41,657 bases of DNA, from positions 1 through 41,657 of the IMG/VR virus record IMGVR_UViG_3300027868_000014. One strand, written 5' to 3'. Below the pieces are notes generated by a model that saw only the letters and a program-made list of their open reading frames with translations, did not search any database and was not told the DNA's origin. A program made the translations under genes and the position numbers. Below, one piece after another: positions 2,798 through 28,694 of the stretch (positions within the stretch are counted from its first letter, which is position 1; every line of letters starts with the position of its first letter). Origin of the DNA: a virus.

Positions 2798-2806
2798 GAA
2801 TTTAAC

Positions 2807-2833: not shown

Positions 2834-2842
2834 AGAAGCAAA

Positions 2843-3082: not shown

Positions 3083-3092
3083 CCAATTCAAA

Positions 3093-3108: not shown

Positions 3109-3124
3109 AACAAGGAGAGATATC

Positions 3125-5610: not shown

Positions 5611-5949
5611 ATGAAACCTGAAACAATGATGATTAATGATGTTAAATACGTAAGAGAAGATAGTATAAATTACGTAGCACTTATTGACGAAGCTACAGAA
5701 CCTTTACGCATAATAATGAACGATGATCGTGGGTTGTGCCTTGTTGGTAATGTTAATCTTGATACCGATAACTGGCTTGTGGAAATTAAAAACGCTCGTT
5801 GTATAATTCAGTGGGGAACAAAAGCACACCTTTCTGAACTGGCTGATAAGGGGATTCTGCCTAATACATCCATGGGCCATACATACACGCATAAAATGCC
5901 CCGGTCTAAAATAGCCCTTGTGCTTGAGTGTAATATGGAGAACTGGTAA
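5611..5949 (+). CDS. Hypothetical phage protein (DUF6948-like)
   Basis: 112 residues from ATG 5611, chosen because GGAG lies 6 nt upstream; ATG 5599 lies in the terminator tail without a ribosome binding site. The C-terminal half, VEIKNARCIIQWGT followed by LSELADKGI, resembles a widespread family of small phage proteins with an 'I..WGT..GL.ELA..GP' core that I recall as DUF6948. Function not established. It directly follows structured RNA A, and its stop overlaps the start of the Gly/Tyr/Asp repeat protein. Confidence 0.65.
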   Translation: MKPETMMINDVKYVREDSINYVALIDEATEPLRIIMNDDRGLCLVGNVNLDTDNWLVEIKNARCIIQWGTKAHLSELADKGILPNTSMGHTYTHKMPRSKIALVLECNMENW

Positions 5950-6128
5950 TGTCCGACGGCTACGGATACGGCTACGGATACGGCGACGGCTACGGCGACG
6001 GCTACGGATACGGCTACGGATACGGATACGGCGACGGCGACGGCTACAGCGACGGCTACGGCGACGGCTACGGCGACGGCGACGGCTACAGCGACGGCGA
6101 CGGCTACGGCTACGGCTACGGCTCTTAA
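5949..6128 (+). CDS. Gly/Tyr/Asp low-complexity repeat protein
   Basis: 59 residues, nearly all GY, GD and a few GS/YS dipeptides after MSD, ending GYGS. The start forms a TAATG overlap with the previous stop and has GGAG 8 nt upstream. The DNA is a 6-bp minisatellite (GGCTAC, GGATAC, GGCGAC). Another frame gives an Arg/Leu-rich ORF (5918-6136), rejected because it begins inside the previous gene. Such Tyr/Gly-rich chains are disordered and can self-associate; the role here is unknown. I recall similar short GDGYG proteins in other phage genomes. Confidence 0.7.
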   Translation: MSDGYGYGYGYGDGYGDGYGYGYGYGYGDGDGYSDGYGDGYGDGDGYSDGDGYGYGYGS

Positions 6129-6155
6129 TTAAATAACCAGAATACGGAGGGGATT

Positions 6156-10038: not shown

Positions 10039-11425
10039 AGCAGCTAAAGAGATCCTATCCCGGCGTAAGGCTCGGAGGAATTTACAGGATTTCATTATCT
10101 ATATCAATCCTGATTATATCGTCTCGGACTTCTCAAAGGAGGTCTGTGATGAAATTGATACTTTTATAGTAAAAATGATGAACGGGGAACGTCCTGTTCT
10201 TATTCTGGGAGCCCCACCTCAACACGGTAAAAGTGATATTGTATCTCGATACCTACCCGCTTATTTCTTCGGTTTATACCCCGATCAGAGATTAGCGGGA
10301 TTGTCGTATGGTAAAGACTTGGCATCCGATATGAACCGGGATGTTCAGCGCATTATGATGGGGGAGGAGTACAGCAACCTTTTTCCTGATTCAGCACTAA
10401 ACTCTAAAAGAGTTGTGACCATAGATGTTGAGGCGAAGCGTAACAGTGAGACTTTTGAAATTGTTGGGCGTAAGGGTAGTTACGTTGCCCAGGGTGTCGG
10501 CGGTCCCCTGACCGGAAAAAAAGTAGATCTTGGCATAATTGATGACCCGATAAAAAACGCCAAGGAAGCATTATCACAGACCACTAAGAACAGCGTTTGG
10601 AATTGGTACGTTTCCACCTTTACAACGCGCTTATCAAAAAATAGCGGCCAGATTATCATGGCGACCCGGTGGGCAGAGGACGATTTATCCGGGCGTGTCA
10701 TTGAGAAGAATAGTAAGGCAATAGTTCTTGCATTCAAGGCGATCAGTGACGAAGGGTCGGCTCTGGTTCCTGAATTACACCCTATTGATAAGTTGCTCGA
10801 AACAAAAGAGATTTTGGGTGAATATTTTTGGTCGGCAATGTATCAGCAGTCACCAACGGCACTCGGCGGGGATATGTTTAAGTCCGAGCATTGGAAATAT
10901 TATACGGCTCTCCCTCCGATAAAAAGAAAGGCCATATTCGGAGACACTGCTATGAAAACGGCAGAGAAAAATGATTACTCCGTATTTCAGTGTTGGGGAG
11001 AGTCACACTTCGGCGCCATCTATTTAATAGATCAGATCAGGGGCAAGTGGGAAGCGCCAGAGCTTGAAATAAATGCAAGGGCATTCTATAATAAACACCG
11101 TGATGCTAATGGGTGCGTATGCTCGTCTGTTAACATAGAGGATAAGGCAAGCGGTACAGGCTTGATTCAATCGCTAAAGCGTGAGGGAATCCCGATAGTC
11201 GGCATACAGCGCAGCATTGATAAAATAGTCCGTATGCACTGTACAACACCGCTTATTTCTTCCGGGAATGTTCATCTTCCAGAGGATGCACCATGGCTTT
11301 CTGATTATTTGGCAGAGTTTAACGCAGCACCAAACGGGACGCATGATGACCAAATAGACCCGACCATGGATGCCACCGAATATTTCCTTGGAAGCCCTTC
11401 AATAGATTACGGAGCAATATTATAA
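10025..11425 (+). CDS. terL: Terminase large subunit
   Basis: 466 residues from ATG 10025, inside the end of terS. ATPase: Walker A GAPPQHGKS (62-70), Walker B LGIIDDP (169-175), coupling region ATRWAEDD (213-220). RNase H-like nuclease: first Asp in FGDTAMK (305-311), IEDKASG (371-377) and HDDQID (440-445), giving the Asp triad. It cuts concatemers and pumps DNA into proheads. The stop overlaps the portal start (TAATG). Confidence 0.95.
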   Translation: MTKAEAAKEILSRRKARRNLQDFIIYINPDYIVSDFSKEVCDEIDTFIVKMMNGERPVLILGAPPQHGKSDIVSRYLPAYFFGLYPDQRLAGLSYGKDLASDMNRDVQRIMMGEEYSNLFPDSALNSKRVVTIDVEAKRNSETFEIVGRKGSYVAQGVGGPLTGKKVDLGIIDDPIKNAKEALSQTTKNSVWNWYVSTFTTRLSKNSGQIIMATRWAEDDLSGRVIEKNSKAIVLAFKAISDEGSALVPELHPIDKLLETKEILGEYFWSAMYQQSPTALGGDMFKSEHWKYYTALPPIKRKAIFGDTAMKTAEKNDYSVFQCWGESHFGAIYLIDQIRGKWEAPELEINARAFYNKHRDANGCVCSSVNIEDKASGTGLIQSLKREGIPIVGIQRSIDKIVRMHCTTPLISSGNVHLPEDAPWLSDYLAEFNAAPNGTHDDQIDPTMDATEYFLGSPSIDYGAIL

Positions 11426-12861
11426 TGGCAAAAAAGAACCGAAATAAAATAAAGAAAGTTAAGAAAGTTAAGGCTCAAGGGTTTCAAGACGGGGTATCCA
11501 GCTTTTCAAACAGCTTGATAAACCAGCGTAACGCGCTGAACACCAACGCCTTCGCTCATACCCAAATGGACGACACAGAGCTTTCAGCGGTATTCAAAAA
11601 CGGGACATTCTCAAAGATCATCCGTATTAAGACCGGGTACGCGCTTAAAAACGCCTTTGATTTTTCGAGCACGAAAGATGAGACGTTTTATAATGAGAAT
11701 ATTGCAAAGCAGGTCAAACGTGCGTGTATGTACCAACTCGGATTCGGCCGGGGAGTTATAGTCATCGGCATGAAGGGTGACGATCTGGCAAAGCCACTTG
11801 CCAATGGATCTATAACCCTATCAAAAATGGTTCTCCGGGTGTTTGACAAGACCAAGGTGTCTACCCAGGATGTAGGCACCTCTTTAATGGCAGATAGATA
11901 TATGAAACCCGGCATGTATTCGGTAAACGGTGAGCCGATCCACTGGACCCGGGTTATAGATTTTACGTATTATGAGCCGATAGAAGACGACCTCCCCAAT
12001 TATGACTATGCTGGCGTTTCCGAGGCTGAATTGATCCTTGACGAGCTGAAACAAAAGGGGATTATCACCAGGGCTAACGCAAGCATAGTTGAAAAGATGA
12101 GTACGGTATTTTACCAGGTGGACGGGTTCAAGGAAAAACTTGCAACAAAGCAGGAAAACACCCTTTTATCATTCTTCGCACAGCTCGAAACCATGCGAGG
12201 CATGTACGGGGCCGGGATCATCGACAAGAACGATGATGTTAAAACCGTTTCCCAAACCTTATCAGGGATCAAAGATATTTATGACATTGCCATGAACGGC
12301 CTCGCCTTGGTTACTGGTATCCCGGTCCCTATGCTTATAGGCGAGAATGTCAAAGGGCTGAACTCCACCGGAGACACAGAACGACAGATATTTAACGACA
12401 ATATGGACGCATACCTTGCGGATTACATCTTTGACCGGGTAAACGAGCTTTTTATTAGAATCGGCATGGACCCGGTAACTATTTCAGAATCAAATAACTT
12501 GAGCGCAGTTGAACAGGTCAATTATGATAAGGCAGTTGTTGAGGTGGCTGACAAGCTCCGGGGCATGGGAGAGGACCATCATTCATATTTGGAGGATAAA
12601 GGGCTCGTTAAAGAGGATCCTCTGTTTGATTTTGATACTACTGACGATATTGATCAGTCGGTAGATCCGGCGGCGGCATTAAACGGCGCGCAGGTCAAAT
12701 CTATGTACGATATCATCGTGGGCGTTTCAATGGGTGAGCTGCCAAAGTCTACAGGTATCCAGATGCTCGTAAATGCATTTCCTATTGATGAGGCCCAGGC
12801 GACCGAGCTTATGCGTGATGTGGTGGAGGGGTCCACAAAGCCTCTTGAGGCGGTGCAATAA
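11425..12861 (+). CDS. Portal protein (DUF1073 type)
   Basis: 478 residues, Lys-rich N-terminus. The order terL-portal-head morphogenesis and segments such as GFGRGVIVIGMKGDD, the crown-like acidic C-terminal region and LALVTGIPVPMLIGE followed by TGDTERQIFND match the DUF1073 portal family of myoviruses and Mu-like phages. It forms the dodecameric DNA gate at the prohead vertex. Its stop overlaps the next start by one base (TAATG). Confidence 0.88.
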   Translation: MAKKNRNKIKKVKKVKAQGFQDGVSSFSNSLINQRNALNTNAFAHTQMDDTELSAVFKNGTFSKIIRIKTGYALKNAFDFSSTKDETFYNENIAKQVKRACMYQLGFGRGVIVIGMKGDDLAKPLANGSITLSKMVLRVFDKTKVSTQDVGTSLMADRYMKPGMYSVNGEPIHWTRVIDFTYYEPIEDDLPNYDYAGVSEAELILDELKQKGIITRANASIVEKMSTVFYQVDGFKEKLATKQENTLLSFFAQLETMRGMYGAGIIDKNDDVKTVSQTLSGIKDIYDIAMNGLALVTGIPVPMLIGENVKGLNSTGDTERQIFNDNMDAYLADYIFDRVNELFIRIGMDPVTISESNNLSAVEQVNYDKAVVEVADKLRGMGEDHHSYLEDKGLVKEDPLFDFDTTDDIDQSVDPAAALNGAQVKSMYDIIVGVSMGELPKSTGIQMLVNAFPIDEAQATELMRDVVEGSTKPLEAVQ

Positions 12862-13677: not shown

Positions 13678-13953
13678 ATGCCAGATACATTACCAGATAC
13701 AACCCTACCAAAAAACACGCCTGTTGATCTTTACGACGCAACAGGTATCAGCGTAGCAACAGCAATCACAGTCCAGAACATAGGCTCCACTATCGTAGAA
13801 CTTTATAGTGGATTAGCAGCTCCCGTCATAGGCGCAAGCGGAAAACGACTAATCAAACCGTTCGAGACATGGCAAAATGACGCATCGGACGCAGGCGCGT
13901 GGGCTATTTCTCCAAACACTGACGGCCTGATTAACGTAGGGGAGGTGGTCTGA
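13678..13953 (+). CDS. Small virion protein, probable head decoration or appendage base
   Basis: 91 residues, ribosome binding site GGAGG. Thr/Pro-rich start, then a beta-rich stretch (VDLYDATGISVATAITVQNI, WQNDASDAGAWAIS). Similar short proteins precede fibre-like genes in other head modules. It overlaps the next start (TGATG at 13952). Function by position only. Confidence 0.6.
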   Translation: MPDTLPDTTLPKNTPVDLYDATGISVATAITVQNIGSTIVELYSGLAAPVIGASGKRLIKPFETWQNDASDAGAWAISPNTDGLINVGEVV

Positions 13954-15629
13954 TGGGATGGAAAAGAGTTTATCCAGGGGTCGGGGATAATGGAACACCC
14001 GACAATACAACCGACACAAATATTCCTGTGAAATTAGCCGGTGCTTTTGAAGATTCGCCGTTACATTGGTCAGGCGTTTCGGGTGAAAATATCATATCTG
14101 ATGAAACAATTGAGGTTCCTCCCGGCACAATCCAAGTAGGTGAAGGATTGAAGATGTCAGCGGCCGGAGTTATCCCGCTATTCAATTCAACACTGACAGG
14201 AATCAGATATATCCCCACGATGTTTTCCTACGACGAAACGGGGTCCACAAAGCCATTTACACTTGATATCGGAGCTAATCAGCAACTTATAGTACAACCT
14301 GATTTTTCAACAGCTGTTTCTTTGTCGGGAATGTTTACGGTGGCAGCAACGGCCAGTGAGTTTATAAATAATCTAATTCTTAAATGCACACCCCTTTCGA
14401 CTATGGGAGGAATGAGAATCAGAATGGTAGCACAAAGCACTGGAGAAGCAATATATTATTACCCATCAAAGGCAGCATGGAACGCTGAAGAGGGCGAAGA
14501 TATTGTAGTTGATGCCACTGGAGACGTAAATATTGACTTAACGGAAGCGCCTTTGGGTCTGCTTATTGGTGAAGTATTAGACGTAGATTACCATGCAGAC
14601 ACCGGGGATTTATTCGGTGATGGCGTTAACCCTTATCAGGAGGTTACACGGCAGATTGTAACCTTCGTGGATCTGGTAGACGAAGCTCCGCTTGACGGGA
14701 AGCAGTACGCGCGACAGAGTGAAATATGGACGGAAGTCATACATGAAGGGCATTATTTAGGCGTGTTCGCTGATGTGACCGCTTTAGAAGCTGCCTATCC
14801 AACGGCAAACGATGGTGATACTGCTACAGTGACCACGCCGTCTGCTAACCTTTTTTACTGGTCTGGTACGGCATCGGCATGGGTTGATACGGGTACGGGT
14901 TATCTTGGCGATATGTTAAAAGCTGTATACGATCCCACCAATATCGGTAATGATGTTTTCAGCATGACAAATATGGTTGAAGGGGCCACGGCTAAAGTCT
15001 TATTAGATACAGAAAGAGACAAGCTATCTGGCATAGAAGCCGGGGCAGAGGTCAACGTCCAGTCAGATTGGAATCAAGCAAGCGCACTCGTTGATGACTT
15101 TATTAAAAATAAGCCTGATGTCGCAACAATAACGCAGATAAATAATACCACAGGTTATGCAAATTACCTTGACAGCTCCACGGCAGGAGTACCACGGAAT
15201 TACGCTTCTAACAGTGAGTTGCCATTATTAAATGATAAGGCCATACTAGATGGTTCAAGATACCCCGATGGAGTTACAAGTTATTGGGATGATGTTAATC
15301 ACAAGTTTACACCTGATCAGGATAACGGAAATTATTCGTTCTCGGTCAACTTTAACGTGGATGCGTTAGTAAGAGACAAGCGCCTTGTTGTTAAGTTTAC
15401 GTCATTAGACGCTGGGGGACCTGGGGTTGACCAACTTATACAGGAGCGACTTGTCAGACTCCAGAAAGACGCCGGAGATATCACCCCAGTTTCCATCTCG
15501 TTTACGGCGGGGGTGACTCCTGCGGTGGCACTGCACGGAGTCACTGTAACGCTCGAATTTCAGGACACATCGGCAAACGTTTATGACATAATCTGTGGGC
15601 TCACAAAGGACGGTGCGGAAATTCTTTAA
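13953..15629 (+). CDS. Large fibre-like appendage protein, probable head fibre
   Basis: 558 residues, beta-rich with no signal peptide. The region around 270-310 (DVTALEAAYPTANDGDTATV...FYWSGTASAWVDTG) is a repeat type common in phage fibres. The segment near 353-380 (ERDKLSGIEAGAEVNVQSDW then NKPD) is a widespread fibre shaft linker. The C-terminal 120 residues look like a beta-sandwich. Location between head morphogenesis and capsid genes suggests a fibre on the capsid or collar rather than the tail; this is inferred. Confidence 0.7.
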   Translation: MGWKRVYPGVGDNGTPDNTTDTNIPVKLAGAFEDSPLHWSGVSGENIISDETIEVPPGTIQVGEGLKMSAAGVIPLFNSTLTGIRYIPTMFSYDETGSTKPFTLDIGANQQLIVQPDFSTAVSLSGMFTVAATASEFINNLILKCTPLSTMGGMRIRMVAQSTGEAIYYYPSKAAWNAEEGEDIVVDATGDVNIDLTEAPLGLLIGEVLDVDYHADTGDLFGDGVNPYQEVTRQIVTFVDLVDEAPLDGKQYARQSEIWTEVIHEGHYLGVFADVTALEAAYPTANDGDTATVTTPSANLFYWSGTASAWVDTGTGYLGDMLKAVYDPTNIGNDVFSMTNMVEGATAKVLLDTERDKLSGIEAGAEVNVQSDWNQASALVDDFIKNKPDVATITQINNTTGYANYLDSSTAGVPRNYASNSELPLLNDKAILDGSRYPDGVTSYWDDVNHKFTPDQDNGNYSFSVNFNVDALVRDKRLVVKFTSLDAGGPGVDQLIQERLVRLQKDAGDITPVSISFTAGVTPAVALHGVTVTLEFQDTSANVYDIICGLTKDGAEIL

Positions 15630-15637
15630 ACCATAAC

Positions 15638-15670
15638 GAATCCCCCGGTCATTATGTGGCCGGGGGATTC
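15638..15670. terminator. Hairpin terminator between convergent genes
   Basis: 11-bp perfect stem GAATCCCCCGG / CCGGGGGATTC with an 11-nt loop. It lies between the end of the rightward head-fibre gene and the end of the leftward cassette. T-tracts on either side are weak, so termination may be partial or bidirectional. Confidence 0.7.
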
Positions 15671-15671
15671 C

Positions 15672-15818
15672 CTATTCTTTCCCGACAAAAGCCCAAACCA
15701 GCGCCAGCACCCAGCCGATAAAAGTCCAGCCTAAAAACAGGTTCAGCACAAATATAGCATGAGTGTTATTGTTGTTTATAAAATCTTCCGTCAAATTCTT
15801 TTTGTGATTTTGGGTCAT
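15672..15818 (-). CDS. Superinfection-immunity (Imm-type) membrane protein
   Basis: 48 residues from ATG 15818; longer in-frame starts at 15824 and 15866 exist, and the start is uncertain because the frame overlaps the zinc-ribbon gene at 15766. The segment FVLNLFLGWTFIGWVLALVW is the signature of the Imm superinfection-exclusion family (T4 Imm relatives), which sits in the inner membrane and blocks entry of related phage DNA. Last gene of the leftward cassette, ending 2 bp from the terminator stem. Confidence 0.75.
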   Translation of the reverse strand: MTQNHKKNLTEDFINNNNTHAIFVLNLFLGWTFIGWVLALVWAFVGKE

Positions 15819-15933
15819 GCTCATTTCTATGTGCACAGCCGTTACATAGAGGAAATACATTATCAAAAGTTATAAACATGGATCGGGAAGTGCTCACGAA
15901 ACCACATTGTTTGCAGGCATAAAGGTCTTTCAT
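15766..15933 (-). CDS. Small zinc-ribbon protein
   Basis: 55 residues. ATG 15933 has AGGAG 6-7 nt upstream. CKQCG near the N-terminus and CNGC about 23 residues later make a Cys4 ribbon, followed by a basic/acidic tail (HDPKSQKEFDGRFYKQQ). It overlaps the Imm frame by 53 bp; its clear ribosome binding site and Cys4 pattern support it being real. Confidence 0.65.
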   Translation of the reverse strand: MKDLYACKQCGFVSTSRSMFITFDNVFPLCNGCAHRNEHDPKSQKEFDGRFYKQQ

Positions 15934-15971
15934 CACAATCTCCTAAAAATCCCGGATCGGCGGGGTTGGGG

Positions 15972-16226
15972 TTATATTTTATCGTATGTTTTCCAAAATA
16001 TATCAGGCTTGCATGGATAGAACTCTCCATTTACGCCTTTGATAATAAAGTCCCCCTTGCTTGCTACCATTTCACCTTTAAGAGTTTTAATAATCACTGT
16101 GTCATATGCAGATTCCCAATAGTCTATTATATTTGGGTCTTCGACAAATTTAAACAGCTCGTCAATATTGGTGCCGTTCCATTCGATTGCTTCTACAACA
16201 ACTGGTTTTTTTCTGAACTTGCTCAT
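15972..16226 (-). CDS. Conserved phage protein (MSKFRKKPVVVEAIEW type)
   Basis: 84 residues. The start MSKFRKKPVVVEAIEWNG and the C-terminal GDFIIKGVNGEFYPCKPDIF match a very widespread small phage/prophage protein ('PGDYIIKG..GEFYPCKPDIF'). No function is established for this group. Strong ribosome binding site AAAGGAGG, within a short intergenic block repeated before the gene at 16701. Confidence 0.75.
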   Translation of the reverse strand: MSKFRKKPVVVEAIEWNGTNIDELFKFVEDPNIIDYWESAYDTVIIKTLKGEMVASKGDFIIKGVNGEFYPCKPDIFWKTYDKI

Positions 16227-16254
16227 ATCATCCTCCTTTACGGTATGTTATTTA

Positions 16255-16701
16255 CTAATGAAGTTTGCCAAAGGCATCAATAAGCATGGCCCCGCAATCT
16301 CGGCCGATGGTTATAGCATCCTCAACCGTCATTTCTATTGGATTTACGCTGCCGTTAGTTGGCCGTGGTAGCCCTTTATCTACCCAAAAGGAAACAGCTG
16401 CCTCATAGATCTCTGGATATTTTTCTTCTTCAATGCGGTAAAGGCCGGAACGCTTAATGTCGGTCAATTTACCTTCTGAAATCATTTTCTTTAGCCTTAC
16501 TAAAAGATGGCCTGCTGATATTTCTTTTGTTATGGAAGTTCTGGCACAAAGCTGGAGCTGTGTTGCAGAATCAACCCAAAGATAAGATTCTTCGTGTAAC
16601 CCATATCTTCCGCCAACATATTTTCCACGAACGTTTTTAGCTATGTGCCTCAGTTGTTCATGCCAAATCAATTCTAATAGTTCTTCGTCCGTAATCTTCA
16701 T
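16255..16701 (-). CDS. Hypothetical protein
   Basis: 148 residues, ribosome binding site AAAGGAGG. The N-terminal 110 residues are basic and helical with a possible winged-helix-like middle (TKEISAGHLLVRLKKMISEG, then GLYRI). The C-terminal segment NPIEMTVEDAITIGRDCGAM is acidic. No family recognised. Confidence 0.65.
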   Translation of the reverse strand: MKITDEELLELIWHEQLRHIAKNVRGKYVGGRYGLHEESYLWVDSATQLQLCARTSITKEISAGHLLVRLKKMISEGKLTDIKRSGLYRIEEEKYPEIYEAAVSFWVDKGLPRPTNGSVNPIEMTVEDAITIGRDCGAMLIDAFGKLH

Positions 16702-16731
16702 ATCATCCTCCTTTACTGGTGTGTTATTCAG

Positions 16732-16989
16732 CTAAACAAAGGTTGAAAGATCGTCATCGTCCACAAACCATCCAAAGGCATTCAGTTTCTTTGAATCCTC
16801 CTCTGTTATACCTGCTTCAATTAGAGCATCAACACCACAACCATAGATCTGGTCATGCTGAGCAGCCTCTACGCCTGAATTAGGCAGGTATTTTGCGATA
16901 ATATTCAACCCGGCAAGAGTATCACAGAGTTCCGTAGTCGATATCGGCGTATCTTCTTCCATTATTTCTTCGAATCGTTCTTTTTTCAT
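16732..16989 (-). CDS. Hypothetical acidic protein
   Basis: 85 residues, strongly acidic C-terminus (GWFVDDDDLSTFV), ribosome binding site AAGGGAG. No recognised family. It is the first cassette gene downstream of the gene-free stretch 16990-17485, so its mRNA would carry that region as a leader if transcribed from upstream. Confidence 0.6.
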   Translation of the reverse strand: MKKERFEEIMEEDTPISTTELCDTLAGLNIIAKYLPNSGVEAAQHDQIYGCGVDALIEAGITEEDSKKLNAFGWFVDDDDLSTFV

Positions 16990-17022
16990 AAGTCTCCCTT
17001 TAAAATAAAGTAACTATTGATT

Positions 17023-17481
17023 AGGCATAGAGCTACCCGAATACCCGCACCGCCCTTAAGCTACACCTACCTATTCGGTAAGCTATGCAGATACCACCAT
17101 TACCAAAACCCTTGCAGGAAAAAGGTTCACTCCACTATATCAGGTACTTTTTATAGAGAGTCACCTCTTCGCCCCACCGTTATGGCCGTGGTCGCCTAAT
17201 GTGCGTTGGTTTACCTGTTTAACCGGGTCAGACCATGGAGTGATCTTGATTTTTTTAAGCTTGGTTCAAATCGTTTGATATTCCAAGGATGGACCGTTAA
17301 CGGACTTGGAAAAACTATTGGGATATTGACCTTGATACCACAATGTGGTAGTGTGTTTTTAGTCTTGCTGCTCTATCCCGTAAATAGAAAGTTGAGATTA
17401 GGTTGACCAAGATTTACAAGATCTCGATCAACTGGCCTGATTATAGCCCCCATTCCTTATTAAGTCAAGGTTTTGGGGGCT
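17023..17481 (+). other. Gene-free, structure-rich stretch (possible ncRNA)
   Basis: About 495 bases (16990-17485) lie between genes with no credible coding frame on either strand. Base-pairing segments, oriented as a plus-strand RNA: 17025-17043 with 17072-17088 (about 16 bp with small interruptions); TCACTCCA 17127-17134 with TGGAGTGA 17236-17243; TTCCAAG 17281-17287 with CTTGGAA 17305-17311 enclosing CCGT/ACGG; a TACCA/TGGTA palindrome at 17336-17350; and a terminator at 17445 with a T-run on the plus strand. That orientation suggests a plus-strand RNA opposing the cassette genes. I found no convincing plus-strand promoter, and no tRNA cloverleaf. Confidence 0.45.
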
Positions 17482-17485
17482 TTTT
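17445..17485 (+). terminator. Rightward intrinsic terminator
   Basis: AGCCCCC (17445-17451) with GGGGGCT (17475-17481), inner CCTT/AAGG, then TTTTT. The T-run is on the plus strand, although all neighbouring genes are on the minus strand. Confidence 0.75.
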
Positions 17486-17620
17486 CTATTCTCTGTGGCA
17501 ATCCATCCAGTGGCTTAAAATAATTCCAAAAGCTCCCAAAGAAACCCATATATTAGATGCATAGGCTATCAATGCCAGCCCTCCTACTCCGCAAATTGCC
17601 GATTTAATATCAACTTCCAT
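17486..17620 (-). CDS. Small hydrophobic membrane protein
   Basis: 44 residues (start MEVDIKSAICGVGGLALIAY, end HWMDCHRE), essentially one or two short membrane helices. Weak ribosome binding site AAAGG 9 nt upstream, preceded by a CCCCGC/GCGGGG hairpin. Small membrane proteins of this kind in phage accessory cassettes often act in exclusion; no family is recognised here. Confidence 0.5.
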   Translation of the reverse strand: MEVDIKSAICGVGGLALIAYASNIWVSLGAFGIILSHWMDCHRE

Positions 17621-17636
17621 AGATATCTACCTTTTA

Positions 17637-17675
17637 CCCCGCTACTTGCCTGTCAAGTTTGCGGGGTTTCTTTTT
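17637..17675. terminator. GC hairpin: rightward terminator, or leader hairpin of the minus-strand gene
   Basis: CCCCGC (17637-17642) with GCGGGG (17661-17666) and inner CTTG/CAAG. The plus strand reads TTTCTTTTT directly after it. On the minus strand the same hairpin stands just before the ribosome binding site of the 44-residue membrane protein. Confidence 0.6.
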
Positions 17676-17862
17676 GGGCAGGATGGCATACTCTGGTATC
17701 ACCAAATCTCCACCATTGCCACCACTTAGGGTTTGTCCATCCGAAATGTTTAGCCGATTCTATGCAATCCGCCTTTGCCTCCTCCAAGGTATCTCTTCCG
17801 CTAACCGAAACCGTTGTTTCTCCATTGTTCTGCCTCCATGTTATGCTAAACCCGTAGCTCAT
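17653..17862 (-). CDS. Hypothetical protein
   Basis: 69 residues from ATG 17862, chosen because GGGAGG lies 4-5 nt upstream; an in-frame extension to 17895 lacks one. Starts MSYGFSITWRQNNGETTVSV; the middle DTLEEAKADCIESAKHFGWT resembles a beta-alpha unit with a Trp-rich patch (PKWWQWWRFGD). No family recognised. Confidence 0.6.
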   Translation of the reverse strand: MSYGFSITWRQNNGETTVSVSGRDTLEEAKADCIESAKHFGWTNPKWWQWWRFGDTRVCHPAQKETPQT

Positions 17863-17910
17863 ACATCCTCCCTTCGTCACCCTGGCAAAAGTCAAGGTGT
17901 CGTTTTCGTT

Positions 17911-18114
17911 TTAGACTTCCTCAAATCCGATATCAAGGCCAGAATTCCACCAGTGCTCCTCTACCATTTTATATTTTTCATCATCCGACATACTATTCCA
18001 CTCTGCTTCTGCATCTTCTTCAGTTTCGACACCGAAGTATTCAACAAGATCTATTTCTTCTGATCTTCGTGAATGTATGTTTGCACCACTGTCGCACCAA
18101 ATTTTAATCTTCAT
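17911..18114 (-). CDS. Conserved small phage protein (DUF7167-like)
   Basis: 67 residues from ATG 18114. MKIKIWCDSGANIHSRRSEE and the C-terminal WWNSGLDIGFEEV match a small phage protein family that I recall as DUF7167 ('DSGANIHS...GLDIGYEE'). Strongly acidic. Function unknown. The start is preceded by GGGGATTTG and a GC hairpin. Confidence 0.7.
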   Translation of the reverse strand: MKIKIWCDSGANIHSRRSEEIDLVEYFGVETEEDAEAEWNSMSDDEKYKMVEEHWWNSGLDIGFEEV

Positions 18115-18127
18115 CAAATCCCCAATC

Positions 18128-18158
18128 CCCCGCCTGACTTTGCAAGCGGGGCGTTTTT
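18128..18158. terminator. GC hairpin: rightward terminator, or leader hairpin of the minus-strand gene
   Basis: CCCCGC (18128-18133) with GCGGGG (18146-18151), then CG and TTTTT on the plus strand. On the minus strand it lies 14 nt before the start codon at 18114. Confidence 0.6.
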
Positions 18159-18230
18159 GTTATCCCAATTTTGACAGCTCGTAGTTCAAACTCTCAACCC
18201 ATTCATCAAGAGATTTCATGTTTTTTTCAA

Positions 18231-18488
18231 TTAAAAGTACCTCTTAGTCTTTTTGACATGATGGGGTGTTACTGCCTTGATGGTTTTAAGACCATCACCC
18301 ATTAGCGCGGCTGCATGTTTGATTTGCTCGAAAGCTTCTGAAAGGTTTTTCATAGCTACTCTTGCCCTTGGGATGCCATGGGCTATCAGGTTTTTCAATT
18401 CTGGAGAGTTACCTCCCGATCCAACTATTATCATTTTTGTCTTTAGGTCCGCATTGTTGGTAGCAATTTCAAAATTTGCTTCTCTCAT
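18231..18488 (-). CDS. Hypothetical protein
   Basis: 85 residues, ribosome binding site AAAGGA 6-7 nt upstream. Helical; contains MIIVGSGGNSPELKNL and a basic C-terminus (HHVKKTKRYF). No family recognised. About 60 bases beyond its end hold no convincing gene apart from a 19-codon frame. Confidence 0.6.
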   Translation of the reverse strand: MREANFEIATNNADLKTKMIIVGSGGNSPELKNLIAHGIPRARVAMKNLSEAFEQIKHAAALMGDGLKTIKAVTPHHVKKTKRYF

Positions 18489-18525
18489 AATCTATCCTTT
18501 CTCGATCTGTTTTGGTTTGTTTTTG

Positions 18526-18717
18526 CTACCGAGCTTTGGCCCTGATTTGAGGCCCTGATTTGAGGCCCTTGATAAACTCTACTGACTCATCGGTATATAT
18601 CCATAGATGTCCGATTCTTTTTGATCCTGGGATGTCATACCGCCCTCTAAGGTTTGCTATGCTTGCGCGACTATATCCAAGCTTTTCGGCAAGCTGTGTG
18701 GCGCTGTATTGTTTCAT
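18526..18717 (-). CDS. HTH (MerR/excisionase-like) DNA-binding protein
   Basis: 63 residues from ATG 18717, favoured over ATG 18723 by ribosome binding site spacing. YSATQLAEKLGYSRASIANL followed by RGRYDIPGSKRIGHLWIY is a helix-turn-helix with wing typical of excisionase and MerR-like (HTH_17) regulators. It probably controls the cassette promoter. Its last 40 bases contain a 14-bp tandem duplication (around 18541-18570) encoding GLKSGPQIRAK. Second gene of the leftward cassette. Confidence 0.75.
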   Translation of the reverse strand: MKQYSATQLAEKLGYSRASIANLRGRYDIPGSKRIGHLWIYTDESVEFIKGLKSGPQIRAKAR

Positions 18718-18730
18718 TGTCATCCTTGTT

Positions 18731-18746
18731 GCCCTCCGAAGAGGGC
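18731..18746 (-). promoter_or_regulatory. UUCG-tetraloop hairpin before a ribosome binding site
   Basis: On the minus strand: GCCCTC-TTCG-GAGGGC, then AACAAGG and the start codon of the HTH gene. Stem and downstream AACAAGG are identical to the plus-strand element at 3093; only one loop base differs. Confidence 0.75.
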
Positions 18747-18753
18747 GGTTGAT

Positions 18754-18915
18754 TTATCTTTTAGCAACCTCGTTTGAGAACTCCTGGAACATTTGGTCAT
18801 ACTTTTCAGAACCTTCTTCAATTTCTGCGGCGTACATTCTGGAAGAGAACTCTTCGTTTAAATTTGCAATCTCTTCTGCGCTATAACCGTCTGTGTTGTA
18901 TTCAGTAAATGACAT
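18754..18915 (-). CDS. Small acidic protein, first gene of the leftward cassette
   Basis: 53 residues: starts MSFTEYNTDGYSAEEIANLN, ends EFSNEVAKR. ATG 18915 has AAGGGGGAAC upstream. Rich in Glu and predicted helical. It is promoter-proximal and shares a 27-nt leader with the unrelated gene at 2843. An overlapping plus-strand frame was rejected. Family unknown; small acidic phage proteins in this position include inhibitors of host factors, but nothing in the sequence proves that. Confidence 0.7.
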   Translation of the reverse strand: MSFTEYNTDGYSAEEIANLNEEFSSRMYAAEIEEGSEKYDQMFQEFSNEVAKR

Positions 18916-18924
18916 TTTGTTCCC

Positions 18925-18951
18925 CCTTGATTAAGTTGTTTTTGTCTCACT
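18925..18951 (-). repeat. Shared 5' leader, copy 2
   Basis: Exact 27-nt match, in opposite orientation, to 2807-2833. It starts 9 nt after the -10 and ends at the ribosome binding site, as in copy 1. Confidence 0.85.
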
Positions 18952-18960
18952 CTTAAACAC

Positions 18961-18989
18961 AGACTACAACAAGTGATGTTAGTTGTCAA
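18961..18989 (-). promoter_or_regulatory. Promoter of the leftward cassette
   Basis: On the minus strand: TTGACA (18989-18984), 17 nt, TAGTCT (18966-18961). The spacer carries a different sequence from the 2769 promoter but includes a CAAC...GTTG imperfect dyad. Confidence 0.7.
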
Positions 18990-19117: not shown

Positions 19118-20476
19118 ATGGACGAGTTGTTAAAAAAACTATTGGCGGGTGAAGAATTTAAGGAGGCGGATTATCGGGGAACACCCGTTAAACTAAACGA
19201 GCCATTTCTGACGCCAGATGACAAAATGGACTTTGCCACATACGCGGAGAACTCAGCGGGTGATATTGTGCGCGTTCGCTTTGATGCGATGCCGGATGGT
19301 TCTTCCGGTGTCGGGCTACGATGTGATATGCAAAAAGATCGGTCTACTCCTGCATATTGGATGTGCAAAATGGTCGGTGACGTTGCCGTGACGGATCACG
19401 CATTCCAGGCCATAGCGGTATTCGATATGGCATCTAAAACTCTCACAAGCGTACGTGACGGGGTTCAGGAGTACATGGGTGTCGAACTCGGCATTGAACC
19501 CGCAAGCAAGATTTTTACTATTTACCGTTCGCCTGAAACCATTTCAGCGATCATGGGGGCAATGGATGGAATATCAATTATCGAGGACCATATCGATGTT
19601 GATGCCGTTCCTACTGAAGCGCAGACAATCGGACTAATCGATGAAACAGAAATAATTGCATGTGTCGATGCTGCTACAGATTCAACGTGTCAGCTATCAA
19701 ACGCTGTAAAGGTCGGCTCTGCGGTTCTAAAATTGATTGACGGGGGGAAAAAGCAGCTCTCTCTTGGATATACTGCAAAAGTTCGTGAACACAAAGAGTA
19801 CAATTTTGAGCAGTATGATATTGTCCCGAGGCATTTAGCCATTGTGGATTCCGCCCGGGGTGGTTCCGGGCTAACTTTTAAAGATGGAGAAAACGGAATG
19901 GGTAAAATTCTGGTGGATAGCCTGAAAGCGTTCATTGATGCTGAAGGCTTTTCAGCTAAACGGCTCTTGGGGCTTCTCAAGCAGATTCAGGATAATATCG
20001 AGAACCTTGATGGGGCAGAGTTTAAAAAGGTAATTTCAGCGATCGAAAAAGCTGTGGGTATTGCCGAGGGTGCAACGGAAGGTGAGCTTGAAGGTGATGA
20101 TCTTGAGCCCGATGTCGAGCCCATGACCGACCCTGAAATGGTTTTGGATGCCGACCCGGAGAAAAAAGATGAGGAAAAAGTAATGGACATGAAAGACGCA
20201 AAGTTTGTTGATGCTGTAACCGTTGCGGCAACCGCCATAGCAAAAGAGCATGTGGCCGTAATCGCAAAGGCAAAAACAATCCTTCCTGAGACTTTCGATT
20301 TTGCCGATAAAACACCAAACGAGTTGATGGTTGCCTGTCTTAAAGAAGACGGCCACGAAGACGAGTTTAAGGATTCTGATCTTGCCCTGGCGTTCAAAAT
20401 GATCAAGCCCGTTGAAGATAAATACAAAAACTTCGGTGATGCAAAAACCGATGACGTTTGGAACAAGGAGATTTAA
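19118..20476 (+). CDS. DUF2213-type prohead protease-scaffold protein with extra N-terminal domain
   Basis: 452 residues. About residues 110-265 match the DUF2213 pattern (VRDGVQEYMGVELG, then AVKVGSAVLKLIDGGKKQLS and EYNFEQYDIVPRHLAIVDSA), a capsid maturation protease group. Residues 275-450 are acidic and helical (scaffold-like, with EGELEGDDLEPDVEPMTDPE). The first 100 residues contain FATYAENSAGDIVRVRF, then RSTPAYWMCKMVGD, resembling a short module with a 'YVkn..G.v..V.FG...tp.YWsCkmw' core found in other phage capsid-processing proteins. It shapes the prohead and is then cleaved or expelled. Confidence 0.82.
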   Translation: MDELLKKLLAGEEFKEADYRGTPVKLNEPFLTPDDKMDFATYAENSAGDIVRVRFDAMPDGSSGVGLRCDMQKDRSTPAYWMCKMVGDVAVTDHAFQAIAVFDMASKTLTSVRDGVQEYMGVELGIEPASKIFTIYRSPETISAIMGAMDGISIIEDHIDVDAVPTEAQTIGLIDETEIIACVDAATDSTCQLSNAVKVGSAVLKLIDGGKKQLSLGYTAKVREHKEYNFEQYDIVPRHLAIVDSARGGSGLTFKDGENGMGKILVDSLKAFIDAEGFSAKRLLGLLKQIQDNIENLDGAEFKKVISAIEKAVGIAEGATEGELEGDDLEPDVEPMTDPEMVLDADPEKKDEEKVMDMKDAKFVDAVTVAATAIAKEHVAVIAKAKTILPETFDFADKTPNELMVACLKEDGHEDEFKDSDLALAFKMIKPVEDKYKNFGDAKTDDVWNKEI

Positions 20477-23854: not shown

Positions 23855-25357
23855 ATGGCTGAATTGTCAAATGTAATTAATGTCGGGATCTTGCCAGAGG
23901 GGAAAGCGGTCGCGGGTGACAACATGAATGTTGTTGCTATTTTTACCTCTGACCAGACGAAGTTAAGCACCAACAACAGATATGAACTTTACCGGAGTAC
24001 AGGCGCGGTTGATGCTGACTTTGGAACCGAAAGTGAAACCGCTTCTTTTGCTCGGTCTTTTTTCGGGACAACTCCTAACCCGGTATCAGGCGGCGGCGGT
24101 GTTCTGGTCATGGCTTACTGGAGATCGGCGGAAGAGACTGTCCCGGCAAGTGCGGCGGTATTAACCGGAGAGCAGTTAAGCGAGTCCGTAACGATTCCGC
24201 AGCTTCAGCAGATATCAGACGGGTCGTTCAAAATTTCAGTTGACGGTGTTGAAATTGATGCAACAGGAGTTGATTTTTCTTCCGTATCTGATTTTTCGGA
24301 TGTCGTGACGATCCTTGACGCAGAGGTAACAAGCGGAACTGTGTCGGAGGTTGACGGTAGATTTATTGTAACCTCCGACACAACAGGCGTTACCTCTCTG
24401 ATCGATTATTTTATTCCTTCGGCGGCGGGGACTTTCGTGGGGGCTCTCCTGGGGCTCAATTCAAATAGTTTAGCCACTACCGTTCAGGGCGCTGATAGTT
24501 CGGTGGAAGCACCAGAAACAAAACTTGAAGCACTGGCGGCGGTTAAGGCTCTTGTAAACTTCAAGGGATTCACCTTTATTGACAACCCAACGGACCAAGA
24601 AAGCGAAGACTCCGCAGAATGGGCGCAGGCCAACGATGTGATGGGTTATGATGTTTTCGATCAGGCAACGAACCTTGAAAAGACCAGTTCTAACCCTGTA
24701 TGGCAAATCAAACTTGCAAGCAAGACGAATTATAGGATGCTCTACAGCAAAGCAGGCAACAGGAAATTTGCCGCCACATACATGGCTCGGGCGCACGTTG
24801 TCCTTTTTAATGGGGAAAATACAGCTCTCACAATGAACCTGAAAGAGCTTTCTGAAGCTGCCGAGGTTTATTCTCAGACTGAGATTGACAAGGCGGCACA
24901 AGTTGGACTCGATATTTATACTCTGTTCGGTGGAAATGAAGTACCCAAAGTTTTGACATCCGGGAGTAATGATTTCACGGATAATAGATATAATATTCTA
25001 AGTTACAAAAACGCAATTCAAGTTAATGTATTTAATATATTGGGAATAACTGCAACAAAGATTGCTCAAGACCAAGCTGGAGTCGATAAGCTCGTAAATG
25101 AATGTATAAGAACCACAGAAATTTACCGCAGGGCCGGAGTTTTTTCCCCAGGTACTTGGAGTTCGCCAGATAGTTTCGGTGACTTAGACACATTCAAACG
25201 AAACATCGAAGCAAATGGTTATTATTTTATAGCTGGTTCGCTTGCGGCTCAGTCACAGAACGACAGACAGGCAAGAAAATCTCCGGTCATTCAGGGTGGA
25301 TTAAAACTGGCCGGGGCCATCCATAGCGCCGATATTATTCTAAGCGTAAACGTATAG
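23855..25357 (+). CDS. Tail sheath protein (DUF3383 type)
   Basis: 500 residues, start MAELSNVINVGILPEG. A long protein with Ig-like inserted regions, followed by NYRMLYSKAGNRKFAATYMA and a C-terminal SADIILSVNV strand, as in DUF3383 contractile sheaths. Its presence defines a contractile-tail phage. In related genomes the tube gene follows at once; here an HNH endonuclease gene is between them. Confidence 0.85.
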   Translation: MAELSNVINVGILPEGKAVAGDNMNVVAIFTSDQTKLSTNNRYELYRSTGAVDADFGTESETASFARSFFGTTPNPVSGGGGVLVMAYWRSAEETVPASAAVLTGEQLSESVTIPQLQQISDGSFKISVDGVEIDATGVDFSSVSDFSDVVTILDAEVTSGTVSEVDGRFIVTSDTTGVTSLIDYFIPSAAGTFVGALLGLNSNSLATTVQGADSSVEAPETKLEALAAVKALVNFKGFTFIDNPTDQESEDSAEWAQANDVMGYDVFDQATNLEKTSSNPVWQIKLASKTNYRMLYSKAGNRKFAATYMARAHVVLFNGENTALTMNLKELSEAAEVYSQTEIDKAAQVGLDIYTLFGGNEVPKVLTSGSNDFTDNRYNILSYKNAIQVNVFNILGITATKIAQDQAGVDKLVNECIRTTEIYRRAGVFSPGTWSSPDSFGDLDTFKRNIEANGYYFIAGSLAAQSQNDRQARKSPVIQGGLKLAGAIHSADIILSVNV

Positions 25358-25383
25358 ACAGGTGGTTATCACCATGCTATAAT
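25355..25383 (+). promoter_or_regulatory. Promoter of the HNH endonuclease gene
   Basis: TAGACA (25355-25360), 17 nt, TATAAT (25378-25383) with TGC directly before the -10 (extended -10). The spacer contains GGTG-GTTAT-CACC, a dyad or hairpin. It overlaps the last codons of the sheath gene. Confidence 0.75.
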
Positions 25384-25413
25384 CGGTTAACTTTTAAACC
25401 AAGGAGATTGATT

Positions 25414-26067
25414 ATGGCATGTGAGTTTGTAAAAGATTTAGGGTTATCTTTCCCTAATGAAACCAGCAAGAAAAAATGCAGGTATTATATATTGTTCTGC
25501 CCATACTGCAAAAAAGAGTTTAAGGCCCAAGCAAGGTACTACAATACAATAGGGCTTAAGTCTTGTGGAAAATGCGCGAGTGGGCTTAGAGACTTGTCTG
25601 TTTACACCCGCACACATGGGTTAAGCACCACACCAATTTATCACGTTTGGAGCGCTATGAAGGCGAGATGTAACAATAAACTGAATCCTGCGTTCAAGAA
25701 CTATGGAGGTCGTGGAATAAGCGTGTGTGACGAATGGTCCAACGATTTCAAAAAGTTTTATGATTGGGCTATGCAGAACGGATACAAAAAGGGATTGCAA
25801 ATAGATAGAATAGACAATGACGGACATTATACCCCTTCAAATTGTCGTTATGTAACTCCCTTTGTTAATATGTCGAACCAGAGAGAAATGGTAAAAACAA
25901 ACACCTCTGGATATAAGGGTGTTTCGCTATGCAATGCGAGTGGAAAATTTTGTTCATTCATTAAAATAAAAGGCAAAACAAAGAATCTTGGAACATATAG
26001 CACAGCTATAGAAGCAAGTGGAGCCTACGAAAAAGCCAGAACAGAAAAATATAAAGACATTATATAA
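25414..26067 (+). CDS. Free-standing HNH homing endonuclease with AP2-like domain
   Basis: 217 residues from ATG 25414 (AAGGAG upstream). Zinc-like CPYCKKEF...SCGKC at the N-terminus. The HNH core NYGGRGISVCDEW with LQIDRIDNDGHYTPSNCRYV covers about residues 96-150. A C-terminal AP2-like DNA-binding segment SGYKGVSLCNASGKFCSF follows, with LGTYSTAIEASGAYEKA. Such enzymes cut phage DNA lacking the gene and spread by repair. It has its own promoter and separates sheath from tube. Confidence 0.9.
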   Translation: MACEFVKDLGLSFPNETSKKKCRYYILFCPYCKKEFKAQARYYNTIGLKSCGKCASGLRDLSVYTRTHGLSTTPIYHVWSAMKARCNNKLNPAFKNYGGRGISVCDEWSNDFKKFYDWAMQNGYKKGLQIDRIDNDGHYTPSNCRYVTPFVNMSNQREMVKTNTSGYKGVSLCNASGKFCSFIKIKGKTKNLGTYSTAIEASGAYEKARTEKYKDII

Positions 26068-26875: not shown

Positions 26876-27078
26876 CCATACCAAGGGCAGGCGGCGGGGA
26901 AAACTTCGTAACTGAAACCAACTTAGACGGGTATATGATGCAATGTTGCAACCTTTCAAAAGCTGGTTTCGGTTCGATTCGGGAGATTAAAGAAATGGAT
27001 ACCGATGAGTTTCTTGATCTCCTGGAATACGAAGCGATAAGCAACGATATTTATACATTTAATAGCAAGGTGAGCTAA
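26501..27078 (+). CDS. Tail assembly chaperone frameshift fusion product
   Basis: Predicted -1 shift at TTTTTTG (26848-26854) joins 118 codons of the first frame to 74 codons (from GGC at 26854) of the second, giving about 192 residues. The second frame has no ribosome binding site of its own, continues as GRKPYRLTIPRAGG, and stops exactly at the tape-measure ATG. This matches the conserved G-GT strategy of tail chaperones. Confidence 0.75.
26848..26854 (+). promoter_or_regulatory. Programmed -1 frameshift slippery site
   Basis: T TTT TTG in the zero frame (codons CCT-TTT-TTG), the X XXY YYZ pattern. A CCGC/GCGG pairing is possible downstream (around 26867 and 26891) and could be the stimulator. 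Confidence 0.75.
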
Positions 27079-28694
27079 TGGCAGTAGTCACGGAACTTGT
27101 AACAAAATTTGGGTTTGAGGGTTCTACCGCTCCGCTTGCAAGCTATAACAAAGCATTGGGGCAGGCGGTCAAAGGGCTTGCCGGGTTTGCGGCGGCTACC
27201 GGGGCGGCTTTGGTCGCCGGGGCTGGTGTTCTTGGCGTTATAAACAAAGAAACGGCACAAATGGCTTCTCTTGCTGAAGCAGTAGGGCTGACAACCCGGC
27301 AATACCAAGCATATGGAGCCGCCGCCGCCCAGGTGGGCCTCGATTCTGAAGTTGTGGTAGACCTCTTTGAAGAGATGAACAATAAGTTTGGTGAATCTGC
27401 GGCACTCATGGCAAAGGGTGAAGCTCCATTAGGTGCGGTTAGTGATGCAATGGGTATTCTCGGATTAGAGTTCGAGAACATATCCAGCCTCAAACCTGAT
27501 GAGCAGTTCCGGGCCATATCAAAAGCCATTGAAGATATGCCGGACGCACAACAGGCGGCAAGCGCAGCGGATATCCTTTTCGGCGGCGATGCCAATAAGT
27601 TCTTTTCAAATATGAAAAAGACCGGGCAGTCTCTCGACAGCCTTACCAAGAAATACGATGCAATAAACTTTCTCACGAAAGATGGTATCAAAGGAGCAAA
27701 GGCATACACGCAATCTTTTGGCAATCTTGGTAGAATGTTCAGCTCTATAGGTCGGGAAATATCCGGCGTAGTCGGCGGTCAGCTAACACCTGAGATTGAA
27801 GATCTCACAAGGGGAATCACGGATCTTATCAGCGAAAATAAAGACTGGATAATCGGAATCGCAGGGCGGACAGTTGATATAGTTGTTGCTACTGGCAAGG
27901 CCATTGCGAGATTAACTCCATTTATCTTGGCAGGCGCGGCGGCATGGGGGGTAATGACCCTGGCAACAGGAGGCTTTGCAACCGTAATGGCTGTTTTAAC
28001 ATCCCCGGTCACTCTCACCATAGCAGCCCTTGCAGCGGCCGCTTTAATTATTGATGATTTGATAGTTGCTTTCCAGGGTGGCAACAGCGTTATAGCCGAT
28101 TTTGCTCAAAACTTTTTAGGTATTGATATTGTTCCAGCACTTCATGGCATTGTAGATGGTGTTATGTGGGCAGTAGATCAGGTTGTTTTGGGGTTTAAAA
28201 TGTGGTTTGATTTTTTTGCAGCCGGGTGGGACAAATATTCAGGCATCATTGAAACCATTTCCGGTTTTTTTGGTGGCGGGAAAAACGCTGAGATAAATGT
28301 AAATGATAATACATCCGGCGGGGAACGAGCGCAGGATAATATCTCCAGAAATAGCAGTTCTATTATGGGCTCAACCCCGGTAAGTGAAAATAGAAAAATT
28401 GAATTTGATCAAATCCCCCAAATAGGGAATATAGGATTTGATCAAATCCCCCAAATAGGGAATATAGGATTTGATCAAATCCCCCAAATGCCATCAATCC
28501 AAAATGAAATGACACGGGCAGGCGGAATGACCAGCGCAACCTCAAATACAGGCACTACGAATAATAATAAAATAGAAAATACCACATCAATTACCATCCA
28601 AACGACAAACGCAGCAGAGGCAAGGGCAGGGGTTGATAATGCCCTACAGGATCAAATGCGAAATACTGAAACCGCATTGAATAGGATTGATTGA
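27078..28694 (+). CDS. Tape measure protein
   Basis: 538 residues. N-terminal hydrophobic stretch (AVKGLAGFAAATGAALVAGA), an Ala-rich helical body, further hydrophobic segments around 277-330, and a low-complexity Asn/Thr/Gln C-terminus. At about 0.15 nm per residue it predicts a tail near 80 nm, short for a myovirus. Residues about 442-470 contain three copies of an FDQIPQIGNIG repeat. Sits after the chaperones as expected. Confidence 0.85.
   Translation: MAVVTELVTKFGFEGSTAPLASYNKALGQAVKGLAGFAAATGAALVAGAGVLGVINKETAQMASLAEAVGLTTRQYQAYGAAAAQVGLDSEVVVDLFEEMNNKFGESAALMAKGEAPLGAVSDAMGILGLEFENISSLKPDEQFRAISKAIEDMPDAQQAASAADILFGGDANKFFSNMKKTGQSLDSLTKKYDAINFLTKDGIKGAKAYTQSFGNLGRMFSSIGREISGVVGGQLTPEIEDLTRGITDLISENKDWIIGIAGRTVDIVVATGKAIARLTPFILAGAAAWGVMTLATGGFATVMAVLTSPVTLTIAALAAAALIIDDLIVAFQGGNSVIADFAQNFLGIDIVPALHGIVDGVMWAVDQVVLGFKMWFDFFAAGWDKYSGIIETISGFFGGGKNAEINVNDNTSGGERAQDNISRNSSSIMGSTPVSENRKIEFDQIPQIGNIGFDQIPQIGNIGFDQIPQMPSIQNEMTRAGGMTSATSNTGTTNNNKIENTTSITIQTTNAAEARAGVDNALQDQMRNTETALNRID
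28403..28489 (+). repeat. 33-bp tandem repeat within the tape measure gene
   Basis: Two perfect 33-bp units (28403-28435, 28436-28468) plus a partial third. Each begins with the 12-bp palindrome ATTTGATCAAAT. Confidence 0.9.

What the first reader, a model, noticed from the sequence alone, without database searches (positions are those of the whole stretch)
15672..18989. Antisense accessory cassette inside the morphogenesis operon: candidate defence/counter-defence island
About eleven small leftward genes split the rightward head genes between the head fibre and protease-scaffold. They have their own promoter, an HTH regulator as second gene and a superinfection-exclusion (Imm) gene at the end. 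In Mu-like Pseudomonas phages, anti-CRISPR genes with HTH (Aca) partners lie in the corresponding head region. The unassigned small proteins (53, 85, 67, 69, 44, 85 and 148 residues) are therefore reasonable candidates for inhibitors of host defences. This is guilt by association only.
Basis: inference. Interest (0 to 1): 0.65.

Follow-up and report, generated by a model that had tools for sequence, protein, structure and literature searches.

The report
Antisense accessory operon in phage head genes
A block of eleven small backward-running genes with its own early-type promoters sits among the head genes of an uncultured phage, at a spot where related phages carry nothing or other small-gene cassettes; it looks like an optional host-interaction cargo operon, but no anti-defence activity is shown.

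Summary
Two points extend the reading. (1) The promoter belongs to the phage's early class: TTGACA-N17-TANNNT occurs four times in the window, before three early rightward operons and before this cassette (0.42 expected). A second promoter (17468-17440) splits the cassette in two. (2) The MuF-protease junction is variable: 34 of 65 related loci hold under 250 nt there, six hold leftward genes. In three related phage types leader and HTH are constant while cargo changes, the logic of anti-CRISPR loci.

Anti-CRISPR function is not shown. Pseudomonas phage JBD30 has AcrF1-Aca1 between MuF and protease, but rightward; the window's HTH is not Aca1-like and no Acr homologue was found. The only named host-interaction product is a superinfection-immunity protein (PF14373). 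Best reading: an early-expressed moron operon. The general kind is known (P22 ant moron; antisense tab); size, two promoters and early-class leader make it a new variant.

The parts
18961..18989 (-). cassette promoter PA: TTGACA, 17-nt spacer, TAGTCT
   Evidence: one of 4 TTGACA-N17-TANNNT sites in the window, 0.42 expected; pattern chosen after seeing the leaders
18906..18957 (-). transcribed leader, 87% identical over 52 nt to the leader of the early operon at 2801-2852
18754..18915 (-). c53, 53 aa, acidic, no family
18723..18746 (-). hairpin plus CAACAAGGA ribosome-site segment, 96% identical to 3093-3116 of the early operon
18526..18723 (-). HTH65, helix-turn-helix protein, putative cassette regulator
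   Evidence: HTH_17 E 0.0016; PADLOC mad1 E 9e-8
18231..18488 (-). c85a, 85 aa, orphan
   Evidence: no match in 50,697 phage records
17911..18114 (-). c67, DUF7167 / phrog_8831
   Evidence: 28 phage records
17653..17862 (-). c69, orphan
17486..17620 (-). c44, hydrophobic, probable membrane peptide (by eye)
17440..17468 (-). internal promoter PB: TTGACT, 17 nt, TATAAT (11 of 12)
   Evidence: 7 sites of 11/12 or better in the window, mean 1.35 in 40 shuffles
16990..17433 (-). non-coding leader or small RNA; structured only at its 5' end
   Evidence: no Rfam family
16732..16989 (-). c85b, 85 aa, acidic orphan
   Evidence: no match in phage records or IMG/VR scan
16255..16701 (-). c148, phrog_37442
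   Evidence: three prophage relatives, 39-40%; two phage records
15972..16226 (-). c84, widespread small phage protein of unknown function
   Evidence: 978 phage records
15766..15936 (-). c56, two CxxC motifs (zinc-ribbon-like by eye), GTG start
   Evidence: weakest coding score of the eleven
15672..15824 (-). c50, superinfection immunity protein (PF14373), overlaps c56
   Evidence: E 4.8e-12; phrog_1039 E 1.3e-11; 276 phage records
15638..15670 (.). 15-pair hairpin, putative terminator between convergent units

Best explanation
It is a moron-type accessory operon for host interaction, carried antisense in the head module and expressed early. Shown: coding structure, early-class promoter and leader, a second internal promoter, variable presence at this junction, one superinfection-immunity gene, one HTH gene. 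Inferred: RNA polymerase of the host reads both promoters (PA at 18989, PB at 17468) soon after DNA entry, before the rightward late genes are on; HTH65 binds near PA and limits its own operon; the products act on the host or on competitors, c50 in the membrane blocking superinfecting phage, the others as takeover or anti-defence factors; the hairpin at 15638-15670 stops the leftward transcript before it runs antisense into the fibre gene. Because the cargo has its own promoters and terminator it can be gained, lost or exchanged without breaking head genes.
For: Four TTGACA-N17-TANNNT sites in the window: three before early rightward operons, one before the cassette. 52-nt leader and 24-nt hairpin segment shared with the early operon at 2801-3116; AACTTAATCA only in three leaders, 0.27 expected. 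Cassette G+C 0.418, as in the early regions (0.415, 0.416), unlike the structural blocks (0.455, 0.451). Junction empty or nearly so in 34 of 65 loci, leftward genes in 6 of 65. Constant leader and HTH with changed cargo in L011, L099/L102 and L018. PF14373. Precedents in print: P22 ant moron (PMC2629481, passages) and tab on the minus strand with its own promoter (PMC10884400, passages).
Against: No expression data. PA has a poor -10 (TAGTCT). Nine of eleven products have no functional name. c53, c69, c44 and c56 were never searched against phage records. The window's HTH is not homologous to that of L011/L018. The closest relative, L008, keeps a 30-codon remnant that resembles the start of the 91-aa gene, so its bare junction may be a deletion, not the ancestral state. 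No integrase was found, so lysogenic expression, usual for morons, is not supported.
Confidence: 0.72

Rival explanations
1. Anti-CRISPR or other anti-defence island in the strict sense: one or more unassigned small proteins block a host defence, HTH65 is an Aca-like repressor.
For: Same junction as acrF1-aca1 in JBD30, also RGP G of Pseudomonas Mu-like phages (PMC4378225, passages); fixed HTH and leader with changing cargo in sister phages.
Against: No Acr or Aca1 homologue; opposite strand; HTH near the front of the operon; only Aca1 was compared; neither protein model was confident enough for a fold match.
Confidence: 0.33
2. Displaced early module with ordinary phage functions (like the nin region): small DNA- or RNA-metabolism helpers without a role in conflict.
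For: Leader, hairpin and G+C are those of the early regions; c84 and c67 are common small phage proteins.
Against: The superinfection-immunity gene; free exchange of cargo at this junction in relatives.
Confidence: 0.3
3. Lysogenic-conversion moron: the cassette is read in a resident prophage and protects the lysogen.
For: The palindrome ATACGGGAcTCCCGTAT inside the early promoter at 2769 is absent from PA, so PA would escape that control; tab is a precedent.
Against: No integrase or transposase among the ORFs scanned (not all ORFs were scanned); relatives by capsid are mostly isolates from plaques or contigs of unknown lifestyle.
Confidence: 0.15
4. Antisense control of the head genes is the point: the leftward transcript or the 450-nt non-coding stretch regulates late genes.
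For: A promoter feeds a long non-coding stretch; folding z -2.9 at its start.
Against: A hairpin separates it from the fibre gene; the stretch is not complementary to head genes; the rest folds no better than shuffles.
Confidence: 0.05

Closest known systems
acrF1-aca1 locus of Pseudomonas phage JBD30 (RGP G of Mu-like Pseudomonas phages)
   Same: Between MuF/MuG and head maturation protease; small genes with an HTH partner; variable content. MuF proteins share phrog_324.
   Different: Two genes, rightward; HTH last; window has eleven genes, leftward, HTH second and not Aca1-like. Protease hits share no PHROG.
ant moron of P22-like phages (immI, sieA)
   Same: Accessory group inside the late morphogenesis region, variable or absent in relatives, with a repressor and a superinfection-exclusion gene (PMC2629481, passages).
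   Different: Different junction (genes 16-9), different genes, temperate phages; no early-class leader shared with replication operons reported there.
tab of Pseudomonas phage JBD26
   Same: Minus-strand gene with own promoter inside the rightward late operon (PMC10884400, passages).
   Different: One gene between the terminase genes; prophage-expressed; tested function.
PF14373 superinfection immunity proteins (T4 Imm type; the T4 link is recalled)
   Same: c50 residues 17-46 match profile positions 13-42 of 42, E 4.8e-12.
   Different: Part of an antisense head-module cassette; start codon uncertain, overlaps c56.

Membership tests
moron (independently expressed insert in a phage operon) | present in some, absent in other related phages at the same junction | tested here: met
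   34 of 65 loci under 250 nt at MuF-protease; window 5,441 nt
moron (independently expressed insert in a phage operon) | own promoter and terminator | tested here: met
   sequence signals only; no transcript data
moron (independently expressed insert in a phage operon) | dispensable for morphogenesis | not testable with these tools
   absence from relatives suggests it
anti-CRISPR locus (acr-aca) | a protein with tested or homologous Acr activity | tested here: inconclusive
   no homologue in Pfam, PHROGs, NCBIfam, PADLOC; these libraries hold few Acr families; activity cannot be tested
anti-CRISPR locus (acr-aca) | HTH partner of a known Aca family | tested here: inconclusive
   no similarity to Aca1; other Aca families not compared
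anti-CRISPR locus (acr-aca) | promoter with inverted repeats bound by the HTH | tested here: inconclusive
   GTTGTCAA/TTGACAAC pair over the -35, but 56 of 639 windows of 130 nt have such a pair by chance
PF14373 superinfection immunity protein | profile match above curated cut-off | tested here: met
   46 bits, cut-off 27.9
PF14373 superinfection immunity protein | blocks superinfection | not testable with these tools
   needs an infection assay
MADS (Mad1) | HTH plus the other mad genes | tested here: not met
   only the HTH resembles Mad1 (E 9e-8); no other cassette protein of the ten scanned hits a mad model

The most novel reading that the evidence does not exclude
The MuF-protease junction of this marine and saline phage group is a general antisense anti-defence port: a leader-plus-HTH frame, fed by early-class promoters, into which counter-defence genes are swapped, equivalent to but unrelated in parts to acr-aca loci; the window's c85a, c85b, c69, c148 and L011/L018/L099 cargo would be new anti-defence families.
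Probability: 0.3. Interest if true: 0.65.

Novelty: new variant of a known kind. Interest (0 to 1): 0.42.

Why it matters
If right, a simple rule (small leftward genes between MuF and protease, headed by an early-class leader and an HTH) points to short lists of candidate anti-defence or superinfection genes in uncultured phages, testable one by one in laboratory strains. It also shows an early-class regulatory unit planted in the late region, as an explanation of how such cargo is expressed in time to matter.

Tried and rejected
Single-protein scan of IMG/VR with the protease gave no confirmed relative; the capsid alignment A1 did. Alignment A2 paired non-equivalent tail proteins by mistake and was not used. 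Genome scan with A1 gave one MAG, not a host assignment. The 500-nt non-coding stretch: no Rfam family at gathering score, only chance-level hits below it; no convincing DNA relative in phages (one 27-base match, E 0.5) or exact pattern in IMG/VR; overall fold z -1.5; a passing resemblance to 5S rRNA noted from memory was dropped. Exact 24-base cassette leader: no IMG/VR match. c85b and HTH65 in IMG/VR: none and one; the HTH65 relative L103 lies by other genes. Structure: c148 pLDDT 62, c85b 47; Foldseek best E 0.57 for c148, treated as no match. Inverted repeat over PA rejected as evidence. L011 leader not repeated in its own genome. PDB search of HTH65 only weak hits.

Counting notes: 65 loci are 4 GenBank Vibrio phages and 61 of the 80 IMG/VR loci; the other 19 lacked one gene on the contig. 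Of 31 with gaps over 500 nt, 23 were read as ORF lists (with 33 for L018), 3 by GenBank annotation, and 5 (L017, L022, L058, L067, L079) were not read because their gap lengths equal those of L016, L021, L055, L066, L086. Several loci are near-duplicates, so the counts are not independent.
Full report
What is there. The window is an IMG/VR virus record of 41,657 bases. Between the gene called head fibre (13953-15629) and the head maturation protease (19118-20476) lie eleven leftward ORFs, 15672-18915. Each scores best in its own frame under a codon table from 19 rightward genes of the window (11 of 11). Five of the eleven have relatives or family hits: c50 is a superinfection-immunity protein (PF14373, E 4.8e-12; 276 phage records); c84 is found in 978 phage records; c67 is DUF7167/phrog_8831 (28 records); c148 is phrog_37442 with relatives in three prophages and two phages; HTH65 is a weak HTH_17-type match and resembles the PADLOC model mad1 (E 9e-8). 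c85a and c85b have no relative in 50,697 phage records. c53, c69, c44 and c56 have no family hit and were not searched against phage records.

Two transcription units. TTGACA-N17-TANNNT occurs four times in the window against 0.42 expected, and none of 100 shuffles has four: at 2769, 38919 and 41053 rightward, each before an early operon, and at 18989 leftward before the cassette (I chose the pattern after seeing the leaders, which inflates the contrast). The 52 nt up to and over the start codon match the early leader at 2801-2852 at 87%, and the hairpin segment between the first two genes matches 3093-3116 at 96%. AACTTAATCA occurs only in three such leaders (0.27 expected). The spacer differs: the early promoter holds the palindrome ATACGGGAcTCCCGTAT, found nowhere else in the window, while only 3 of 17 spacer bases agree in the cassette promoter. 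So the cassette shares the early promoter class but probably not its operator (inference). A second promoter, TTGACT-N17-TATAAT, lies at 17468-17440; sites of this quality number seven in the window against 1.35 in 40 shuffles (maximum 4). It precedes about 440 non-coding nt and then c85b, c148, c84, c56 and c50. The block from 15630 to 18915 holds five perfect GC-rich stems on the minus strand against 0.52 in 50 shuffles. Its G+C (0.418) is that of the early regions (0.415, 0.416), not of the structural blocks (0.455, 0.451).

The junction is a variable site. Capsid relatives were collected through alignment A1. In 65 loci with both MuF and protease, 34 have under 250 nt between them and 31 have 0.5-3 kb. 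The window has 5,441 nt, the most. The larger inserts are mostly rightward fibre-like genes, but six loci carry leftward genes there: L011 and L018 (runs of small genes with an HTH), L071 (three genes), L033 (an N6_N4 methyltransferase, PF01555, with a 68-aa gene), L028 and L083 (HNH-type endonucleases). The L083 label rests on its similarity to the window's HNH gene. The nearest relative, L008 (capsid 68%, MuF 69%), has only 186 nt. It keeps a short ORF, MADTLPN..., like the start of the window's 91-aa gene (MPDTLPD...), so there the bare state may be a loss.

Constant frame, changing cargo. L011 and L018 share a leader (83% mean column identity) and an HTH (59% over 44 aa), but none of their other cassette proteins match each other. 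A scan for 20 bases of that leader found exactly these two and two more contigs, L099 and L102, which have the same junction, the HTH at 74%, two cargo proteins at 68-75%, and no match to L011's 84-, 81- and 117-aa proteins. In L071 the divergent leader of the cassette recurs at three other places in the same record at 72-77%; two of these head further leftward genes between structural genes (11140-11763, with a YopX-family protein, and 16157-16903). The window fits this picture but with its own leader family and an HTH that is not detectably related (BLASTP E 0.04 over 24 aa).

Comparison with what is known. JBD30 carries MuF (gp33), gp34, AcrF1 (gp35), Aca1 (gp36), protease (gp37), all rightward. 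Its MuF hits phrog_324, as does the window's; the proteases share no PHROG at the cut-off used. HTH65 shows no similarity to Aca1 (phmmer E about 0.3); other Aca families were not compared. In print, the Pseudomonas Mu-like phages have this as region of genomic plasticity G with anti-CRISPR genes (PMC4378225, passages read; PMC10155984, passages). P22-like phages have the ant moron, with repressors and sieA, in the late region (PMC2629481, passages). JBD26 has tab, a minus-strand gene with its own promoter in the late operon (PMC10884400, passages). I found no paper on this junction in the present phage group in three searches, which is a small search.

How it most likely works. An early-class promoter in front and another inside let the host polymerase read the block before the late genes; the terminator-like hairpin ends the transcript before the fibre gene; HTH65 probably limits its own operon. 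c50 would sit in the membrane and stop further phage DNA entering; in T4 the action of Imm is described as poorly understood (PMC6832632, passages). The other products are best regarded as host-interaction factors, some of which may counter host defences. Only the sequence features are shown; timing, repression and activity are inference.

Limits. No host, no expression data, no structure of use. Near-duplicates among the loci make the counts dependent. How rightward transcription resumes at the protease past the hairpin at 15638-15670 is not solved; no good rightward sigma-70-type site was listed just before 19118.

Noticed in passing
16990-17485 (-): About 500 nt without coding signal after a near-perfect promoter (TTGACT-17-TATAAT); first 90 nt form two strong hairpins (z -2.9), rest ordinary; no Rfam family. 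Small RNA, long leader or decayed gene.
   Followed up: partly
L071 7763, 11763, 16903 and contig 42027-42133: One phage record repeats the same roughly 110-bp divergent leader at four places, three of them heading leftward genes between structural genes: a plug-in promoter for antisense cargo.
   Followed up: partly
2769-2797: Early promoter with a perfect 8+8 palindrome (ATACGGGAcTCCCGTAT) in its spacer, unique in the window: likely operator of an early repressor.
   Followed up: partly
25355-26067 (+): HNH endonuclease (phrog_374 E 7e-58) between tail genes with its own TAGACA-17-TATAAT promoter, related to the leftward L083 gene at the MuF-protease junction: probable homing gene.
   Followed up: no
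1-69 and 41592-41657: The same 12-nt repeat (GACCAGACGCCC, reading DQTP) at both ends suggests that the record is circular or permuted and broken inside a coding repeat of a replication-type gene.
   Followed up: no
5942-6130 (+): Low-complexity gene of Tyr-Gly and Asp-Gly repeats (12-nt and 18-nt units).
   Followed up: no
28395-28493 (+): Three in-frame 33-nt repeats near the end of the 538-aa tail ORF 27078-28694.
   Followed up: no
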